NCBI GenBank assembly: GCA_021463905.1
Contig: JAJTZA010000014.1
Span: 1 to 57,905, forward strand
Direction: 5' to 3'
Length of the DNA: 57,905 nt
Source of the DNA: Terrimicrobiaceae bacterium
Lineage (GTDB): Bacteria > Verrucomicrobiota > Verrucomicrobiia > Chthoniobacterales > Terrimicrobiaceae
Shown here: positions 1 to 15,075 of the stretch, one piece after another
How the letters are laid out: every line of letters begins with the position of its first letter
How positions within the stretch are numbered: the first letter of the stretch is position 1
Translations under genes and position numbers: made by a program
The notes under the pieces: generated by a model
What the model saw: only the letters and a program-made list of their open reading frames with translations
Databases searched by the model: none
What the model was told of the DNA's origin: nothing

Positions 1-453
1 CAGTGGGCCACCGCCCAGTTGGAAGAGTATCTGCGCAAGGGATTCGTCATGGACGACGAACGCCTCAAGAACCCGCCGGGACCGGACGTACCAGATTACT
101 TCGACGAGTTGCTGGAGCGCATCCGCGACATCCGCGCGAGCAAACGCCGGGTGTATTTGCGGGTCCGGGAGATTCTGGCCCTCGCAGCGGATTACGCGCC
201 CGAGGAGAAGGAGACGCAGGCGGTCTTTCAGGTCGTGCAAAACAAGCTGCACTTTGCCGCGACCGGCAAGACGGCCCCGGAACTGATCGCCGGTCGCGCC
301 GACGCCGGGAAAGCCAACATGGGGCTGACGGCATGGAAGGGTGGCGTCGACCGCAAAGGGGCCAACACCCATGAGCACCACATTCGACAGCACCCAGCGA
401 TCTTTGCAGGAGTTCCTGCGCGATGTTCACTCCGGCAAGCTGAAAGAGGCTGA
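1..453 (+). pseudogene. RhuM-family protein remnant (5' end outside window, C-terminus lost)
   Basis: Frame 1 reads QWATAQLEEYLRKGFVMDDERLKNPPGPDVPDYFDELLERIRDIRASKRRVYLRVREI...VFQVVQNKLHFAATGKTAPELIAGRADAGKANMGLTAWKG, RhuM-like; similarity stops near 357 and is followed by unrelated residues to the stop. Confidence 0.7.
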
Positions 454-1446: not shown

Positions 1447-2397
1447 TCAGCCCGCCAGGGCTTTGACATGGGCCACGGCCGCCGAGGCGAGCGCGGCGGG
1501 ATTGTAGCCGCCCTCGAGGACCGAGACGATGCGTCCGGCACACCACGTTTCCGCAAGAGCAACGCTGCGACGGGTCAATTCGGCGTAAGTCTTATCCGTC
1601 CACTGCAGCCCGCCGATCGGATCGTTCTGATGAGCGTCAAAACCGGCGGAAATGAGAAAAAACTCCGGCTGAAAATCCGCCACAGCGGGCGCGATTTTTT
1701 TATCCCACGCGAGAAGGGCCTCCCTGCCTCCCGAGTTTTGCGGGAGCGGGAGGTTGAGAGTTGCTCCGGCTCCTGCGCCTTGCCCCTGTTCCCCGGCGGC
1801 ACCGGTGAACGGATAAATGCCGTGTTCATGCAATGAGATATAAAAGACATCCGGATCTTCCCGGAAAATGGCTTCGGTGCCATTGCCGTGGTGGACGTCC
1901 CAATCCACGATGACCACGCGCTGGCGGCCGTGGTGGATTTGCAGGTATCGGGCTGCGACGGCCACATGGTTAAAAATGCAAAATCCCATACCGAGGTCGG
2001 ATGTGGCGTGGTGCCCGGGCGGACGGACGGCACAAAAGGCCGAGGCCACCTCCCCCCGCATGACAAAATCTGTGGCGCTCAACACTGCTCCGCAGGCTTC
2101 GAGGGCGACGTCGTAACTCTCCGGGCAGAGGGGCGTATCGCCAGTACGAAGCTGATCGGCAAAGTTTTCGGCATCCTGACGCACGACATCCAAGTACCAG
2201 GAGGCGTGCGCCAGCAGGACTTCCTCGGTCGTGGCGATGCGTCCCGGGATTTTGACAAATGACGGCGGTAAATCCTCCAGTGCAGCACACAGCGCGCGGT
2301 AACGCGTGGCAGATTCCGGGTGGAACGGCCCGGTGTCGTGCCGCTCATAGCGGGCGTCAAAGTGGATGCCGGGCTGACGGTTTTTTTTGGTGCTCAT
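1447..2397 (-). CDS. Histone deacetylase family protein (AcuC/class II HDAC-like)
   Basis: Motifs CAVRPPGHHA, GFCIFNHVAVAARYL, VVIVDWDVHHGNGTEAIF, LISAGFDAHQNDPIGGL, LEGGYNPAAL. Confidence 0.93.
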   Translation of the reverse strand: MSTKKNRQPGIHFDARYERHDTGPFHPESATRYRALCAALEDLPPSFVKIPGRIATTEEVLLAHASWYLDVVRQDAENFADQLRTGDTPLCPESYDVALEACGAVLSATDFVMRGEVASAFCAVRPPGHHATSDLGMGFCIFNHVAVAARYLQIHHGRQRVVIVDWDVHHGNGTEAIFREDPDVFYISLHEHGIYPFTGAAGEQGQGAGAGATLNLPLPQNSGGREALLAWDKKIAPAVADFQPEFFLISAGFDAHQNDPIGGLQWTDKTYAELTRRSVALAETWCAGRIVSVLEGGYNPAALASAAVAHVKALAG

Positions 2398-4274
2398 TCC
2401 GGACAGAGGATCCGTTTCTTTTTCAAAAATTGTCTGCGGGATTGCAGGATGCCGACCAGCGGGATGCGGAACTCCTCCTCTCCATCCTCAGCGGTCGCGC
2501 TCCGCCCGCCCACCGCACGGAAGAGTTTTTTCATCGCATAATTTTCGGAAAGCACATTAGCCCAGAAGGTCTTCACCTGGCGTTTGTGGGCGACCTGCGC
2601 GAGTTTCCCCAGGAGGAACCCCCCCATGCCGAGATGTCGGAACTCCTCGTGGACAACAAAGGCGACCTCGGCGGATTGTCCGTCGGGGTCGAGGTAATAG
2701 CGTCCGATGGCCCGGAGTTCCTGACGTCCATGCGCTTCCTCAAACAGTCCGAAGGCCAAATCCTTTCGTTGGTCCACAGCCACCAGTTTGTAAGCCGATT
2801 CGCCGGTCATGCGGTTGCGGCGGTAGCCGTAGCGCAGCCGGACGGTTTCCTCATCATGCGAATAAAAGAACTCCTGAATCGAGCGCATGTCGCTCGGTGA
2901 CAAGGGTCGGAGCAAAAACCGCTGTTTGTGGAATTGAATCCATGCGCTCTCGATTCCATCGTCCGAGACCAGGGGGGCAGGCGGCGGTGTGGTAAAGTAT
3001 TTGGGCAACCAGCCCTTCTCTCGTGCGCCGGCCAGCAGGCCCTCGCGGTGATCCGGGTGGGCGATTTCCACCAATCGCGCCACGCGCTCACGGATGCTCC
3101 GTCCGTGCAGGCTGGCCACTCCATACTCGGTGACCACATAGTGAACGTCGCCGCGTCCGGTGCAGACCCCGCTGCCAACCTCGAGATCCGCGACAATACG
3201 CGAATGACCGCCTTCATCGGATGTCGAAGTGAGTGCGATGATTGGACGCCCCTCTTTGCTGCGCCCTGCTCCACGCACAAAATCCTGCAAGGCGCCGATG
3301 CCTCCATAAAAGCGATGCCCGCTTGAATCCCGCACCACCTGTCCGGTGAGGTCAATCTCGCGCGCTCCATTGATCGAAACCATCCGGTCATTCCGGGCAA
3401 TGCGGCCCGGGTGGTAAACCCACTCGCTGGAGTGCATCTCGAAGTCAGCATTCTCATGGACAAACCGGTAGAGCCTGCGACTGCCCATCACATGGCTGGC
3501 AATGATTTTTCCAGGGCGAAAGGATTTTCTCGTTCCATCGGCGGCTCCGCATTGCACCAGCTCCATCAGCGCATCGTTAAACAATCCGGTGTGGATGCCC
3601 AGGTGATGGTGATTTTTGAGGGCACGGGCCACGGCGTGGGGTGTGTTGCCCAGCCCAAGCTGAAGGGTGGCACCGTCTTCGATCAACTGCGCGGCATAAC
3701 GTCCGATCCGGGTGTGGCGGTCATCGGTCTCCGGCTTCTTGGCCTCGGGAAGGTCGGCCACGCACTCAATCGCAAACGCGATCTTGCGCACAGATATTCT
3801 GGAATCGCCGTGGGTTCTCGGCATCTTCGGATTCATCTGCGCCACCACCACCCGCGCACAATCCACCGCAGAGCGCACCACATCCACGCTAACCCCCAGC
3901 GAACAGTAGCCATCCGCATCCGGCGGACTCACCTGGATCAGGGCCACATCCAAAGGCAGGGGGCCGCAGCGAAACAGCGAGGCCACCTCGGAAAGCGGGC
4001 AGGGCGTGTAATCGGCCTGACCGCGCTCAACGGCTTCGCGCAAGGGACGGGTGAGAAAGAACGAGTTGGTGCGGAGTACACCATCATACCGGACATCAAT
4101 CCAGGGTGATTCCCCCAGTCCATAAATGTGGACGATCTCCACGTCCTTGAACTGCTCCGCAGAAGCAAGAAACGAATCCACCAGCGCAAAGGGCACAGAA
4201 GCACCCCCGCCGATAAACACCCGCCCTCCAGGCGGGACAATGCGTGACCAGTCTTCGGGTGAAAGCATTTTCAT
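2394..4274 (-). CDS. Acetyl-CoA hydrolase/transferase (4-hydroxybutyrate CoA-transferase-like) fused to C-terminal GNAT acetyltransferase
   Basis: N-terminal CoA-transferase region (LQLGLGNTPHAVARAL, GGIGALQDFVRGAGRSKEGRPIIAL, VVTEYGVASLHGRSIRERVARLVEIAHPDHREGLL) followed by GNAT region (LRPLSPSDMRSIQEFFY...VAFVVHEEFRHLGMGGFLLGKLAQVA). 4-nt ATGA overlap with the HDAC gene. Confidence 0.88.
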   Translation of the reverse strand: MKMLSPEDWSRIVPPGGRVFIGGGASVPFALVDSFLASAEQFKDVEIVHIYGLGESPWIDVRYDGVLRTNSFFLTRPLREAVERGQADYTPCPLSEVASLFRCGPLPLDVALIQVSPPDADGYCSLGVSVDVVRSAVDCARVVVAQMNPKMPRTHGDSRISVRKIAFAIECVADLPEAKKPETDDRHTRIGRYAAQLIEDGATLQLGLGNTPHAVARALKNHHHLGIHTGLFNDALMELVQCGAADGTRKSFRPGKIIASHVMGSRRLYRFVHENADFEMHSSEWVYHPGRIARNDRMVSINGAREIDLTGQVVRDSSGHRFYGGIGALQDFVRGAGRSKEGRPIIALTSTSDEGGHSRIVADLEVGSGVCTGRGDVHYVVTEYGVASLHGRSIRERVARLVEIAHPDHREGLLAGAREKGWLPKYFTTPPPAPLVSDDGIESAWIQFHKQRFLLRPLSPSDMRSIQEFFYSHDEETVRLRYGYRRNRMTGESAYKLVAVDQRKDLAFGLFEEAHGRQELRAIGRYYLDPDGQSAEVAFVVHEEFRHLGMGGFLLGKLAQVAHKRQVKTFWANVLSENYAMKKLFRAVGGRSATAEDGEEEFRIPLVGILQSRRQFLKKKRILCPE

Positions 4275-4340: not shown

Positions 4341-7300
4341 TCACGTGCGCGCGGGGGCGGCGCATTCCTCATCCAGGCGCGCATAGTGAAACCAATGCGA
4401 AGGCGCGGCTGCGAAGGCCGGCACCAGAGCGGAGGCAATTTCCCGTGTGAAGTGTTCGAGAGTCGCGCGTTTTCCGGACTCCAGCCATCGCGGCTCGATC
4501 CAGGCCAACGCCTCCATCCGAAACTTTCCGTCGGGCTGTCTCGAAGCCGCCACAGGAATGATCGGACATTTCCCCAAAAGAGCCAGCAGAACCGGGCCGG
4601 TGGAAAAAGGCATCTCCCCGTGCGGCAATGGAACAACCACGGCATTTTCATCATGGGGACGATCAGCCACCGAGGCGACAAATGCCCCTTCATTCAATCG
4701 CCGAACGATTTCCACGGCAGAGAATGAGCTGTTGCCCACCACGAGCGTTTCCACCCCCCAACGGGCGCGAAACGCGGCCCGCCACCCGGTCAGTTCCTCA
4801 GTAGGCTCGGGCAGGGTCAGCGCCACCACAGGAAAACCCATCTGTGCCATCATCAGACCGCCAATTTCAAAAAACCCAAAATGGCCGCTGACCAAAATGC
4901 ACCCTCTTCCTTCACTGCGTGCACGATCCAGGAGATCCAATCCGCAACGCTGACCGATCAGCGCGGTTACATCAGAGGGTTTCTCGAGCTGAGCCAGTCT
5001 CCCGTAGAGAGAAAAGCATTCCGCCTGGTTGATGAAGAGCTGGCATGCGGTTCTGAAGGTGGCGGATTGGGGGTCGAGCAAGGCCAGGTTGTGCCGCACC
5101 GCTTTGAGGGTTGCGGGGTGGGTGAGAGCATAAAACAAGCCGAGAGTGCGGGAGACCACCCATGCGCCCGGAGCCCCAAAAACCTTCCAACAAAAAAGGA
5201 TCCACTCGAAGCTTCCGCGCTGATACAGCCGCCGGTAGAACGCTCTCTCGCGGTAGTCCGCCGTCCGACCCAGCAGGTAAAGCGGCGGCAGGAGAATCAG
5301 ACACGCGAAGACGGCGGCAATCACCCCCAAGTCCATCACCAACCCAAAGTTTTGCAGCGCGGGCTGGCCGGTCAACATGGGCGCTCCAAAACCGATGCAG
5401 GCACTCAGGCCGGTGAGGAGCACTGGTGCCGCCAGATGATCGTATGTGGTCCGCAGGTCGCCATGCTGGTGCTCGAGCGCGAGAAGAATATGCAGGCTGT
5501 AATCCACCACCAGCCCGAAGAGCAGGGGCATGCTAATCAGGGAAATCGGCGTCAACCGCGCACCCGTCACCCGAAGCAGACCGATAAACAGCGAGAGGGA
5601 GAGAGCCAGGGCGAGGAGATTGAGAGCCACCAGTCGGGCGGAGCGGTGGACGAGGAAGCAGAGCACGACAATCCCCCCGAGGATGGCAAGGCCCAATGTC
5701 CCAAAGTCCTGTTGAGCGATTGAGGTGACTTCGCTGGTGAGCGAGACCCAGCTTACCGGAAGGACCTCGACATTGCGGATGCTGGTTTCGAGTCCATCCG
5801 GAGGCACCGGCCGCTGAGCCGCACCGGAGACCCTGACCACAGCAAACACTCCACGCGCGTCACGGCCCGCCATCGTGGAGGTCACATCAGCAATGGCGGC
5901 AAAGGGGTCTTTCTCGCCGCGTTTGAGAGCATCGAGGGTGGCGGCCAGTTGGAGGGTCGGGCCGGACCATTCCTCGCCCAGGTTTGCGGCGGTGAAGGCA
6001 CCCTGCAGGGTGCGGACGCTCTCCGGTGGCCAGAGGGCGATGTTTTGGGTGGCGTTGGTTTCGCTGGGCACCCGCCATGCCGGATTGGCCGCAGCAGGGT
6101 TCACCTTGTGAGCCAGCACCGTGGCCGCCTCGCGAAGCGCATCAAAGGAAGGCCCGCGCAGCAGATACACAGCGTCCCCCTCCGACGGGTCCACGGTTGA
6201 GAGCCACTGCTGGCCGGTAAAGGCGTCACTGCCCACCGGTCGGAGCGCGGAAAGATCGGGATTGTAGAGCCGGTCGTGTCGCGCCCACGGACGCGTCGCC
6301 ACTCCGGCCAACAACGCGACCAGCGCAAACACGACCAACCCGGCACGGTGACGCATGATCCAACGCGAGGCGCGTCCACTCGCCCGAAAAATCACGGGGG
6401 GGGCGTTGGGAGGATTGGCTCGCAACACATCCCGCAGGAGCCATGTGGCAAAAAGCGCGGATGTGAGCAATCCGACGCCGACCAATACGGCGAGCTGGCG
6501 GAGAGCGGGGAAGGAGGAAAATGCCAGCAGGAGGAACGAGAAGGCGGTGACGATGGCGCTGAACCAGATGCTGCGTCGCAGCGTGCGCCAGACGCCCCTG
6601 TCCCCGCGGTGCGGCGCCGCGAAGTGGTGATAAACGAGGATGCTGTAGTCCATGCTCACGCCGAGGAGGATCGAGGCAAAACCGATGCTGATGACATTGA
6701 GTCCGCCATAAAGGACGAGCGCCACCGCGATGCCACTGAGCATGGCCAGCACTTGAAAAAACATGATCCACCCGAGGGGGCGCAGGGTTCGGTAAAACGC
6801 ATAGAATGTGCCCGCCAGCAATATCATGGCCGTAGCCACCATCAGAAGCATGTCGCCGCGCATCCGGCGGGAAATCTCCGCATGAAACACCGGAGCACCG
6901 GTCAGCAACACCTTCCCTCGATCCGATTTCTCCAATGCCGCATCCAGGGAGGACTGCAGTCCACCCACGAACGCGTTCGCTTGGGATGTGGTCGCCAGCG
7001 GGTGATCGGGGCTGATGCGCAGGAAGCCGGCGGATTCCGGCATCCCGCTGGTGGTTTCGGTGTCATCGGTTTCCGGGAGCAGGCCGAGCGGGTCAAACTG
7101 CATCTGGAGGATTTCCGCAGGGTCCACGGCTCCGGACAGCCGCGAGGGGATGCTCGAAAGCCGTTCGTACGCCTGCCCGGGACTCACGGCCTCCGCAACC
7201 GGCGAAAAAATCTCCGGGGGCGCATTGATCAAAACCCATGCGGCAAACGCGCCAAGGTTTTGCATAAAGGTCTCCTGGGGTGCAACCACCTTCCGGACAC

Positions 7301-7565
7301 CCTGGGTGGACGCAAGCGCGGTGCGCGCTGTTTCCAGGAGCTGTGCCCGCTCCGTGACAGGCAGCGAGGGATCCGCCACCGCAAAAACATCATCTTCACC
7401 AATCGCCAGCCCGGTGAATTCGATGATGCCCCGCACGCTGGGTAGGGAGGGAGGCAGCGTGGGAAGCAGCTCGGTTTGCAATTTCGCCGTGGTCGCCCCC
7501 CAAATGCCCACGACAATCACAACGGCCAAAAAGGCGGCGGTCAGAGGCGTGCGGAGCAGGATCAT
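4341..7565 (-). CDS. MMPL/RND-type exporter fused to a C-terminal LpxL/HtrB-like acyltransferase domain
   Basis: Multi-TM region with RND/MMPL features (GVSMDYSILVYHHF, FGLVVDYSLHILLALEH), then an acyltransferase-like domain (GCILVSGHFGFFEIGGLMMAQMGFPVVALTL...VASVADRPHDENAVVVPLPHGEMPFSTGPVLLAL). Confidence 0.85.
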   Translation of the reverse strand: MILLRTPLTAAFLAVVIVVGIWGATTAKLQTELLPTLPPSLPSVRGIIEFTGLAIGEDDVFAVADPSLPVTERAQLLETARTALASTQGVRKVVAPQETFMQNLGAFAAWVLINAPPEIFSPVAEAVSPGQAYERLSSIPSRLSGAVDPAEILQMQFDPLGLLPETDDTETTSGMPESAGFLRISPDHPLATTSQANAFVGGLQSSLDAALEKSDRGKVLLTGAPVFHAEISRRMRGDMLLMVATAMILLAGTFYAFYRTLRPLGWIMFFQVLAMLSGIAVALVLYGGLNVISIGFASILLGVSMDYSILVYHHFAAPHRGDRGVWRTLRRSIWFSAIVTAFSFLLLAFSSFPALRQLAVLVGVGLLTSALFATWLLRDVLRANPPNAPPVIFRASGRASRWIMRHRAGLVVFALVALLAGVATRPWARHDRLYNPDLSALRPVGSDAFTGQQWLSTVDPSEGDAVYLLRGPSFDALREAATVLAHKVNPAAANPAWRVPSETNATQNIALWPPESVRTLQGAFTAANLGEEWSGPTLQLAATLDALKRGEKDPFAAIADVTSTMAGRDARGVFAVVRVSGAAQRPVPPDGLETSIRNVEVLPVSWVSLTSEVTSIAQQDFGTLGLAILGGIVVLCFLVHRSARLVALNLLALALSLSLFIGLLRVTGARLTPISLISMPLLFGLVVDYSLHILLALEHQHGDLRTTYDHLAAPVLLTGLSACIGFGAPMLTGQPALQNFGLVMDLGVIAAVFACLILLPPLYLLGRTADYRERAFYRRLYQRGSFEWILFCWKVFGAPGAWVVSRTLGLFYALTHPATLKAVRHNLALLDPQSATFRTACQLFINQAECFSLYGRLAQLEKPSDVTALIGQRCGLDLLDRARSEGRGCILVSGHFGFFEIGGLMMAQMGFPVVALTLPEPTEELTGWRAAFRARWGVETLVVGNSSFSAVEIVRRLNEGAFVASVADRPHDENAVVVPLPHGEMPFSTGPVLLALLGKCPIIPVAASRQPDGKFRMEALAWIEPRWLESGKRATLEHFTREIASALVPAFAAAPSHWFHYARLDEECAAPART

Positions 7566-7590
7566 GCCGGCGTATTCAGGGGGTCGCCAT

Positions 7591-8877
7591 TTAACGCAGT
7601 GACCGGATCACCGGGACGATGCGGATCATTTCTTGCAGTCGGCAGAGGCAGCGGAAGACCCACAGGCGGAGGCGGTCGGCGATGCCCAGCGTTGTTTCTC
7701 CGCCGACCAGTCGCCCGATGCTTTTCGGGATACCCAGAAGCGGTGCCGGACTCATAAAGACCTCGAACCCTCCTGTGGTGTAAAAGAGGCGGATGATTTT
7801 TGAATAGTGGCGCATCCAACAGGCCATCTCCCGTGTGTAGCCGGCTTGCTCGGAGGGACTCAACGCCCGGCCACCTGCCTCGGCCTTGAGGAGTGCCCCG
7901 GCAGCGCGCAGTCCCGACTTGAACGCCAACGTCACCCCGGAAGAAAAAACCGGATCCAGAAATCCCGCCGCGTCTCCCGTTAAAAGAATCCTCGAAGCCG
8001 CAAATGAGGAAAACCTCCAACTGTAATCGCCGGTGGCCACCAGCGGCGCGACCGCGCGCGCCCGCGCCAGCCTCCGTTGCGCCTCCGATGACTCCTCCAC
8101 CACCTTGCGAAAAACCACCTCCAGTTTCTGCCTGGAGCCAGAGGCCGCTTGCGCGTTGACCATGGCAGTGGGGACAACCACCCCAACCGAGGTCCTGCCA
8201 TCCGCCAGCGGAATAAACCAGAACCAGGCCTCCCGGAGGCGGACGATGGCAATGTGACCCGCCGCTTTGCCCGTATTGCGTTCGACGCCCTCAAAGTGGC
8301 CGTAGATGGCCACCCGGCGGCTCGGCAGGGTTTGCGAGCGACGAAACCCAATGCGCGCGCCCGCGAAGGCAGAGCGACCACTCGCATCAATGACCCACCG
8401 CGCTCCGATACTCCCCTCACCCTCCAGCCCGGAATAGGTGAGCCGCATGTCCTCCGTATTGGGGTCTTTCAGCCCGGTCACCCGCGTCTGTTCGAGCACT
8501 TCACAACCCTGCTCAGCGGCGTGATCCAGCAGCAGACGGTCGAAACTGGCCCGATCCACTTGAAAGGAATACTCGCGCTCCCTGCCGAGGCTCTGCTTGA
8601 ACCAGAAGCGGTGGGTGCGCGAACCGTCCCCCGAGCAAAAATCCGCTCCATACTTGCGCAAGTAGCCGGCATTTTCGAGTTTGTCCCATACCCCCAACTC
8701 CCGGAGTGCATCATTGCCATGCGGCAGAAGGGACTCGCCAATACAAAATCGCGGGAATTTGTCTTTCTCGAAAATCGTGACCCGCAACCCCGCGCGCGCC
8801 AGCGGAATGCCCGCCGCCACCCCGGACGGACCGCCACCAATGATGGCCACATCGGTTGTTCGATGACCAGTGCCCAT
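7591..8877 (-). CDS. NAD(P)/FAD-dependent oxidoreductase, tryptophan-halogenase/geranylgeranyl-reductase-like
   Basis: VAIIGGGPSGVAAGIPLARAGLRVTIFEKDKFPRFCIGESLLP; FWFIPLADGRTSVGVVV; LLTGDAAGFLDPVFSSGV. Start placed at the ATG at 8877. Confidence 0.88.
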   Translation of the reverse strand: MGTGHRTTDVAIIGGGPSGVAAGIPLARAGLRVTIFEKDKFPRFCIGESLLPHGNDALRELGVWDKLENAGYLRKYGADFCSGDGSRTHRFWFKQSLGREREYSFQVDRASFDRLLLDHAAEQGCEVLEQTRVTGLKDPNTEDMRLTYSGLEGEGSIGARWVIDASGRSAFAGARIGFRRSQTLPSRRVAIYGHFEGVERNTGKAAGHIAIVRLREAWFWFIPLADGRTSVGVVVPTAMVNAQAASGSRQKLEVVFRKVVEESSEAQRRLARARAVAPLVATGDYSWRFSSFAASRILLTGDAAGFLDPVFSSGVTLAFKSGLRAAGALLKAEAGGRALSPSEQAGYTREMACWMRHYSKIIRLFYTTGGFEVFMSPAPLLGIPKSIGRLVGGETTLGIADRLRLWVFRCLCRLQEMIRIVPVIRSLR

Positions 8878-8881
8878 GCGG

Positions 8882-9157
8882 TTACGAGAGTTCGGGTGTT
8901 GTGCGCTGACGCAAAATATGATCGCGCAGCGTGCTAAGGCTTTGGAGGGCCTCCCGCGCCGTTGTTGCGTTGGAAATGGCCACCCCGTATTCCTTTTCCA
9001 CGGCAACGGTCATTTGGAGCGCGTCAATGGAATCCAACCCCAAGCCCTCCGGCCCAAAAAGCGGGGTCTCTTCCTCGATCTCTTCCGGGGAAACCTGCAG
9101 CATACAATTGGTCATCAGCATTTCCCTGAGACGCTCAAACGTCACGCCTTCCATCAT
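8882..9157 (-). CDS. Acyl carrier protein
   Basis: Phosphopantetheine attachment motif EGLGLDSIDALQMTVAVEKEYGV in a ~90-aa acidic protein; start MMEGVTFERLREML at ~9157. Confidence 0.85.
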   Translation of the reverse strand: MMEGVTFERLREMLMTNCMLQVSPEEIEEETPLFGPEGLGLDSIDALQMTVAVEKEYGVAISNATTAREALQSLSTLRDHILRQRTTPELS

Positions 9158-9294: not shown

Positions 9295-9885
9295 TCAGAC
9301 GGTGGCCCGCCGCCAGTTCAGGCGGTGGATGGGCTTCTGCTGCTCAAGGAATGTTTGCTCGAAGGTGCTGGGCGGGAAATCACCTCCGGGCGAATCGTCA
9401 GGAATGAGCGCGGGAAGTTTGGCGGCGCGACGACGAACCGCATCGGCGTAAGGCGCATCGTCGGTGACAAACCGCAGGAAACCCCCGGGAGCAAGCACCC
9501 CAATAACGGCTTCGAGAAACTCGGTGTCCACCATCCGGCGGGTGGCGTGTTTTCGCTTCGGCCAGGGATCGGGGAAGAGGATGTGGACGGCTTGCACCGA
9601 ACCCCGGGGGAGCGCACGAAGGGTTTCGAGGCCGCGCGACTGCAAGGCCCACGCATTGGTCAGACCGAGCCGCCTGACTTTCCCGCGCGCCCTCTGAACT
9701 CGTTCCGCCTGTTTTTCGATGCCCAGGATGTTGGCCTCCGGACGCAGTGCCGCCAGGTCCACCAGGAAGCTCCCCCGGTGGCAACCAATGTCAAGGATCA
9801 GCGGAGGCGCCCCGGGTTCGAGCCATCCGGGAGGGATTTCCTCATCCGGGGCAGCGGGTGCTGGATCATCTTGCCAAGGCTCCAT
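9295..9885 (-). CDS. trmB: tRNA (guanine-N7)-methyltransferase
   Basis: LILDIGCHRGSFLVDLAALRPEANILGIEKQ and VHILFPDPWPKRKHATRRMV. Confidence 0.9.
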   Translation of the reverse strand: MEPWQDDPAPAAPDEEIPPGWLEPGAPPLILDIGCHRGSFLVDLAALRPEANILGIEKQAERVQRARGKVRRLGLTNAWALQSRGLETLRALPRGSVQAVHILFPDPWPKRKHATRRMVDTEFLEAVIGVLAPGGFLRFVTDDAPYADAVRRRAAKLPALIPDDSPGGDFPPSTFEQTFLEQQKPIHRLNWRRATV

Positions 9886-13941: not shown

Positions 13942-15075
13942 TCACGCGGAGAGACTTCCCAGCCACTGAGCCGCGCGCAGAATGGAAACCGGCGGACGCG
14001 ACTCCTCATGTCGCAAATTTTTGACGAGATGGATGGCCGTCACGTCGGGGAACTTCTCCGCAAAATTCACCAAAGCCCGCGAGCGGGTGGTATCGGTAAG
14101 CTTACACTCGATCAAATGGGTCAGACGCTTTTCATGGGAAAGACAAAAGTCAACTTCCGCTCCGTCTTTGGTGCGCAGGTAGCTCATCTCGATGTCCTGT
14201 CCCTTGGCGTCCTGAAGAAAATGAACATGCTTGAGCAACATCGCAGCCACCGCATTTTCGAAGCGACATCCCTCACTGCCTTTCACCAACCCCGTGTCAT
14301 AAAAGTACACCTTGGGAGTTTGTCGGACAGCTCGGGCGATATTTTTGTGCCAAGGGCGGACGAGGAAGACGATGAAAAGAGCCTGCAAGATATCCAAATA
14401 ATGCTTCAAGGTGTTGGAAGAAACTCCCAAGTCCTGAGACAACGAAGCCAGAGAGAGAGGAGAACCCACCCGTTCACGCAAACTTTCCAAAAATAATCGC
14501 ATCGCATTGATTTCATGGATCCGCGAAAATTCGAGAACATCCTCGCGGAGCAAATCCGTAAAATATTGTCTCCTCCACCGCTGAGCCTCGTCCTCGTCTT
14601 CCGCCAAACACGGCTCAGGAAATCCCCCCCGCCTCATCAGCCGATCCAGCGCCTCCTCATCGGAACCGCCGCGCTGATCCAGCCACTCTTTGACCGAAAA
14701 CGGATGCAGGCGATAGGAAAAATAACGCCCTGCCAACGAATCCCCGCTTTGTCGCCATGTCTCCATCCGCGCACTCCCCGTCACCAGAAGTGCTTGCCCC
14801 TCTGGACGCGCATCCACCACGCCCTTGAGCCAGCTTTTCCAACGCGCCTTTTTGTGGATTTCGTCAAACACCAAGGCCTGGGCCATCGGATTCCAGCTCC
14901 CACGCTGTACAATCGCCCGATCCGACGGCACATCCCAATTGAAATGCTGACTCGAAAAAAATCCTTCCACAATCTGCCGACACATCGTCGTCTTCCCCAC
15001 CTGTCTCGGCCCAGTGATCATCACCATTTTTTTGCGAAGATCTTTCTCAACGCAAATTTTCAAATACCTATTCAC
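13942..15075 (-). CDS. AAA ATPase with DUF4143-like C-terminus
   Basis: Walker A ITGPRQVGKTTM; ALVFDEIHKKARWKSWLKGVVD; LLVTGSARME; C-terminal DGAEVDFCLSHEKRLTHLIECKLT. Confidence 0.88.
   Translation of the reverse strand: MNRYLKICVEKDLRKKMVMITGPRQVGKTTMCRQIVEGFFSSQHFNWDVPSDRAIVQRGSWNPMAQALVFDEIHKKARWKSWLKGVVDARPEGQALLVTGSARMETWRQSGDSLAGRYFSYRLHPFSVKEWLDQRGGSDEEALDRLMRRGGFPEPCLAEDEDEAQRWRRQYFTDLLREDVLEFSRIHEINAMRLFLESLRERVGSPLSLASLSQDLGVSSNTLKHYLDILQALFIVFLVRPWHKNIARAVRQTPKVYFYDTGLVKGSEGCRFENAVAAMLLKHVHFLQDAKGQDIEMSYLRTKDGAEVDFCLSHEKRLTHLIECKLTDTTRSRALVNFAEKFPDVTAIHLVKNLRHEESRPPVSILRAAQWLGSLSA

What the first reader, a model, noticed from the sequence alone, without database searches (positions are those of the whole stretch)
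4341..9157. ACP / halogenase-like flavoprotein / MMPL-acyltransferase mini-cluster without ketosynthase
Aryl polyene, xanthomonadin and flexirubin clusters contain an ACP, a halogenase-like FAD protein, an MMPL exporter and an HtrB/LpxL-like acyltransferase, usually alongside ketosynthases and dehydratases. Here only these accessory parts are adjacent, with no KS, KR, DH or ligase in the window. It may be a degraded APE cluster, or a self-contained route that acylates and exports a lipid using ACP-bound acyl chains from elsewhere.
Basis: partly seen in the sequence, partly recalled or inferred. Interest (0 to 1): 0.6.

Follow-up and report, generated by a model that had tools for sequence, protein, structure and literature searches.

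The report
Detached piece of pigment-lipid gene cluster
Three neighbouring genes that seemed to be a stand-alone lipid-making and export kit are a broken-off piece of a known type of bacterial cluster for membrane pigment-like lipids (aryl polyene type); the chain-building genes sit on another contig of the same draft genome.

Summary
On the minus strand lie an ACP (8882-9157), a flavin halogenase-like protein (7591-8877) and one 1074-residue ORF (4341-7565) that fuses an MMPL exporter to an LpxL-type acyltransferase. No ketosynthase or ligase lies on this contig. The reading 'self-contained route' is not supported. In 13 loci from related genomes the same ACP and acyltransferase (FAD protein in 11 of 13) sit inside a ca. 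14-gene cluster: PlsC, GT2, polysaccharide deacetylase, ACP, FAD, acyltransferase (fused to MMPL or separate), LolA, dehydratase, KS, CLF-like protein, second FAD protein, membrane protein, AMP-ligase. This resembles the published arcuflavin/xanthomonadin aryl polyene set. The window's own genome carries LolA-KS-CLF-FAD2-membrane protein on contig C113. So the trio is one block of a split aryl-polyene-type cluster. The trio and genes left of it resemble a different family from the genes right of it (trmB onwards): horizontal transfer, or a chimeric contig join near 9.2 kb. Mildly new: the exporter-acyltransferase fusion, and no known aryl-starter enzyme found. The draft genome is 72% complete, so absences are weak.

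The parts
8882..9157 (-). acyl carrier protein (91 aa), Ser in GLDS motif
   Evidence: Pfam PP-binding 6e-8; 51-64% identity to the ACP of 11 related clusters, D42/S43 invariant
7591..8877 (-). FAD protein of the carrier-dependent halogenase type (FAD1, 428 aa)
   Evidence: Trp_halogenase 3e-28; invariant GGGPxG, GESLLP, K75, W218-x-W220-x-I222-P223 in 10 orthologues; best solved relatives ChlB4, PltA, CmlS, 4e-77 to 4e-71
4341..7565 (-). fused MMPL exporter (residues 1 to about 765) + LpxL/HtrB-type acyltransferase (about 790-1059)
   Evidence: one ORF with both Pfam domains; same fusion in seven order-mates and in a Verrucomicrobiales MAG; H-x4-E motif GHFGFFE conserved in all 12 acyltransferases aligned
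2394..4274 (-). flanking gene, not part of the cluster: CoA-transferase + GNAT fusion; 79% identical in genomes of another family, where it follows an fmt-like gene
1447..2397 (-). flanking gene, not part of the cluster: HDAC-family (AcuC-like) deacetylase
9295..9885 (-). flanking gene trmB, resident backbone (GT1-trmB order shared with the window's own family)

Best explanation
The trio is a detached block of an aryl-polyene-type (xanthomonadin/arcuflavin-like) pigment-lipid cluster. Shown: homology, conserved gene order in relatives, motifs, and presence of the matching KS block in the same genome. Inferred mechanism: KS, CLF-like protein and dehydratase build an unsaturated chain on the ACP; the FAD protein modifies the ACP-bound substrate, most likely by halogenation or another flavin-dependent oxidation; the LpxL-type domain moves the chain from the ACP to a lipid acceptor at the inner leaflet; the fused MMPL domain exports the product, and the LolA-like protein carries it towards the outer membrane. 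The fusion would couple acylation to export. In this genome the block is separated from the KS block, possibly by an insertion (CoA-transferase, deacetylase, LuxR, RhuM-like gene) between MMPL/AT and LolA; the orientations of the left ends of C46 and C113 allow one interrupted locus, but the link is not shown.
For: ACP, FAD and acyltransferase orthologues lie in one cluster with KS, CLF, DH, LolA, GT2, PlsC, deacetylase and ligase in related loci; all 13 loci with the ACP have the acyltransferase and KS. C113 carries LolA-KS-CLF-FAD2-LPG-TM in the order and strand pattern of the relatives; LolA, CLF, FAD2 and LPG-TM are 64-73% identical to those of G068, the genome that is also closest for the trio. 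KS keeps the Cys-His-His triad, the CLF-like protein lacks the Cys. The published arc gene set matches: halogenase, PlsC-type acyltransferase, GT, PS-deacetylase, exporter, LolA, acyltransferase, dehydratase, AMP-ligase, ACP, KS, KS-N-like protein, Na/H antiporter (PMC3949708); in Azoarcus that set is also in two unlinked loci, both needed for pigment. FAD1 relatives in named Proteobacteria lie next to MipA, PlsC, GT2, ACP and deacetylase. Composition of C113 and the left end of the window is like the rest of the genome.
Against: No product is known. No aromatic ammonia-lyase and no XanB2-type chorismatase (no positive control) found, so an aryl head is unproven. No ketoreductase was seen among the cluster genes. 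Dehydratase and cluster ligase were not found in this genome, so the pathway may be incomplete. The left 9.2 kb could be a chimeric join.
Confidence: 0.82

Rival explanations
1. Self-contained three-gene route: ACP-bound acyl chains from primary fatty acid synthesis are modified by the FAD protein, transferred by the acyltransferase and exported, with no dedicated ketosynthase.
For: The trio stands alone on this contig, with intact ORFs and motifs.
Against: All 13 related loci with this ACP also have the KS in the locus; the KS/CLF block is in the same genome.
Confidence: 0.06
2. Chimeric contig or foreign fragment: the left 9.2 kb of C46 belongs to another organism of a different family of the same order, mis-joined next to trmB.
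For: Genes left of 9.2 kb are closest to family f12 (CoA-transferase 79%, deacetylase 74%, LuxR 69%, fusion 69%); genes right of it are closest to f1 (prephenate dehydratase 60% v 35-37%, trmB 49% v 34-41%). Both f12-like stretches, here and on C113, lie at contig ends.
Against: C113 shows the same pattern independently (cluster block closest to f12 genomes, a following gene closest to f1), and the composition fits this genome better than the f12 genomes sampled.
Confidence: 0.2
3. Decaying remnant of an aryl polyene cluster with no product.
For: Split locus; dehydratase and cluster ligase not found.
Against: All trio ORFs and the C113 KS and FAD2 ORFs are intact, and the trio and KS keep their catalytic motifs; the genome is only 72% complete.
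Confidence: 0.2

Closest known systems
Arcuflavin (arc) cluster of Azoarcus sp. BH72 (PMC3949708)
   Same: Halogenase, ACP, acyltransferase, exporter, LolA, dehydratase, AMP-ligase, KS plus KS-N-like protein, PlsC-type acyltransferase, GT, PS-deacetylase, Na/H antiporter; genes in two unlinked loci.
   Different: arc has the chorismatase arcB and ketoreductase arcH, not seen here; exporter and acyltransferase are separate genes there and fused here. The dialkylresorcinol genes were not searched for.
Xanthomonadin clusters of Xanthomonas / Lysobacter enzymogenes (PMC3691225)
   Same: KS next to an unusual CLF-like protein, ACP, DH, exporters, outer membrane carrier; halogenase gene in Xanthomonas.
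   Different: Ketoreductase and 3-hydroxybenzoate supply known there, not found here.
Carrier-dependent flavin halogenases PltA / ChlB4 / CmlS
   Same: Sequence family, catalytic-type Lys and WxWxIP motif.
   Different: Substrate unknown; halogenation untested.
Aryl polyene cluster reported in Verrucomicrobiota (Oceaniferula flavus, PMC9865893)
   Same: Predicted aryl polyene cluster in the same likely phylum.
   Different: Gene content there was not compared here.

Membership tests
Aryl polyene (xanthomonadin/arcuflavin-type) cluster | KS with adjacent CLF-like protein | tested here: met
   Not in the window, but KS in all 13 related loci and KS+CLF on C113 of the same genome; Cys-His-His triad in KS, Cys missing in CLF
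Aryl polyene (xanthomonadin/arcuflavin-type) cluster | dedicated ACP | tested here: met
   window 8882-9157
Aryl polyene (xanthomonadin/arcuflavin-type) cluster | FabA/ApeI-type dehydratase | tested here: inconclusive
   Present in relatives (PF07977 4e-16); in this genome only a FabZ-type hit on C155; genome 72% complete
Aryl polyene (xanthomonadin/arcuflavin-type) cluster | ketoreductase in the cluster | tested here: inconclusive
   None among the annotated cluster genes; a housekeeping reductase is not excluded
Aryl polyene (xanthomonadin/arcuflavin-type) cluster | acyltransferase + MMPL exporter + LolA carrier | tested here: met
   fusion in window, LolA on C113
Aryl polyene (xanthomonadin/arcuflavin-type) cluster | aryl starter supply: ammonia-lyase or XanB2-type chorismatase | tested here: inconclusive
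   PF00221: none in own genome, 2 of 13 genomes, neither on the cluster contig; PF21168: 0 of 15, but no positive control rang
Aryl polyene (xanthomonadin/arcuflavin-type) cluster | conjugated aryl polyene product | not testable with these tools
   needs chemistry
Carrier-dependent flavin halogenase | GxGxxG, catalytic Lys, WxWxIP | tested here: met
   invariant in 10 orthologues; K75 aligns with the Lys before (F/Y)GA of ChlB4/PltA
Carrier-dependent flavin halogenase | halogenation of an ACP-bound substrate | not testable with these tools
   needs assay
LpxL/HtrB acyltransferase | H-x4-D/E motif | tested here: met
   GHFGFFE in window, H-x4-E conserved in 12 aligned

The most novel reading that the evidence does not exclude
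A variant polyene-lipid pathway of this order in which exporter and acyltransferase are one protein and the chain starts from something other than the known ammonia-lyase or chorismatase products, with the cluster passed between families and then split.
Probability: 0.2. Interest if true: 0.5.

Novelty: new variant of a known kind. Interest (0 to 1): 0.3.

Why it matters
It places an aryl-polyene-type cluster across several families of a poorly cultured order (probably Verrucomicrobiota), and the natural MMPL-acyltransferase fusion suggests that the cluster's acyltransferase and exporter act on the same lipid in sequence. It also shows that a window-level 'cluster without ketosynthase' can be an assembly or relocation effect.

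Tried and rejected
Self-contained route: rejected after the KS block was found on C113. The first genome-contig scan, with the fusion protein, found no relative; the second, with the FAD alignment, found named but distant relatives, the best at 35-40% identity. C136 KS hit: weak, on a contig of 71% G+C, treated as misbinned. C17 KS: inside a 2636-aa frame with AMP-binding domains, a separate NRPS/PKS-like gene. C38 PlsC-GT2 (34% / 53%) and C27 deacetylase (about 45%) are related but about equally distant from all clusters, so orthology is unsure. No shared 20-mers join C113 to the window. Several paper searches found nothing on point.

Full report
What is there. On the minus strand of the window, an ACP (8882-9157), a FAD protein (7591-8877) and a 1074-residue fusion of an MMPL exporter and an LpxL-type acyltransferase (4341-7565) follow each other with short gaps. 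The fusion is one open frame. Downstream are a CoA-transferase/GNAT fusion, an HDAC-family deacetylase and a LuxR regulator; upstream are trmB, a glycosyltransferase, a PD40 protein and prephenate dehydratase.

Is the block conserved? The fusion was searched in 197 related genomes. Seven other genomes have both halves in one open frame (G068, G098, G084, G056, G074, G131 and, more distant, G028); many more have the acyltransferase as a separate gene, the nearest of them 47-54% identical to the window's. Reading the loci shows one conserved cluster: PlsC, GT2, polysaccharide deacetylase, ACP, FAD1, acyltransferase (with or without MMPL), LolA, dehydratase, KS, CLF-like protein, FAD2 on the other strand, LPG-synthase-like membrane protein, AMP-ligase. 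Of the 13 loci in which the ACP was called, all have the acyltransferase and KS in the same locus and 11 have FAD1 directly after the ACP. Gene calls were made by a simple script, so small genes may be missed. Where the MMPL is separate it is a different lineage: in the tree the fused MMPL halves group with two stand-alone MMPLs (G083, G030), apart from the clusters' separate MMPLs, while the acyltransferase halves mix with the separate ones (long branches, so tentative). This suggests that the exporter was exchanged when the fusion arose.

Where is the ketosynthase? A family search of the window's genome gives an adjacent KS and KS-like gene on C113. C113 begins with LolA, KS, CLF, FAD2, LPG-TM, in the order and strand pattern of the relatives, except that the dehydratase between LolA and KS is missing. 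A PlsC-GT2 pair lies on C38 and a deacetylase on C27. No cluster dehydratase was found, only a FabZ-type hit on C155. The genome is 72% complete, so absence is weak evidence.

One interrupted locus? In the relatives the order is ACP-FAD1-MMPL/AT-LolA-KS. In C46 the reading direction from trmB goes through ACP, FAD1 and MMPL/AT, then CoA-transferase, deacetylase, LuxR and a RhuM-like fragment to the contig end. C113 starts with LolA and reads on through KS and CLF. The orientations permit a single locus with an insertion, but the contigs share no 20-mer and the link is a hypothesis.

Mixed ancestry. Genes left of about 9.2 kb are most like family f12 (CoA-transferase 79%, deacetylase 74%, LuxR 69%), genes right of it most like the window's own family f1, and the GT1-trmB order is that of an f1 genome. 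On C113 the cluster block is closest to f12 and the gene after it closest to f1. Horizontal transfer explains both contigs; a chimeric join remains possible for each. Tetranucleotide make-up of both fits this genome, the left 9.2 kb being the most distant of the six window segments but only slightly.

What the proteins should do. FAD1 keeps the GGGPxG, GESLLP, Lys75 and WxWxIP features in all ten orthologues, and its profile finds the carrier-dependent halogenases ChlB4, PltA and CmlS among the first solved structures. That these act on carrier-bound substrates is established knowledge; halogenation by FAD1 itself is not shown. The acyltransferase keeps GHFGFFE (H-x4-E). The KS keeps Cys163, His296 and His331; the CLF-like protein lacks the Cys.

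Known counterparts. The gene list of the arcuflavin loci (PMC3949708) matches nearly item by item, including the antiporter and the deacetylase, and that pathway too lies in two unlinked loci that are both needed. The KS next to an unusual CLF-like protein, and the halogenase in Xanthomonas, match the xanthomonadin description (PMC3691225). Named relatives carry the same neighbours: Caballeronia (ACP, short-chain dehydrogenase, FAD1, PlsC, GT2, deacetylase), a Proteobacteria MAG (FAD1, MipA, PlsC, GT2), and a Verrucomicrobiales MAG with a 1150-aa MMPL-acyltransferase fusion. Differences: no ketoreductase seen among the cluster genes of the order, no ammonia-lyase in most genomes and no chorismatase (without positive control), so the starter is unknown and the word 'aryl' is by analogy.

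Taxon. Verrucomicrobiota, perhaps Chthoniobacterales, is my inference from the relatives' sizes and from named hits such as a Chthoniobacteraceae MAG; it was not tested directly.

Noticed in passing
window 1447-4274: A CoA-transferase fused to a GNAT domain sits next to an HDAC/AcuC-like deacetylase, also in G068 and G098: looks like a CoA-transferase with its own reversible acetylation pair.
   Followed up: partly
L015 1-7413 (own genome, contig C136): 70.9% G+C and a very different tetranucleotide make-up from the rest of the genome: probably a misbinned contig.
   Followed up: partly
window 1-453: Truncated RhuM-like protein (PADLOC candidate family PDC-S05) at the contig end.
   Followed up: partly
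window 13942-15075: ATPase matching PADLOC candidate family PDC-S01.
   Followed up: no
L022 527-8209 (own genome, contig C17): Frame of over 2500 aa with KS and AMP-binding domains: a separate NRPS/PKS-like gene.
   Followed up: no
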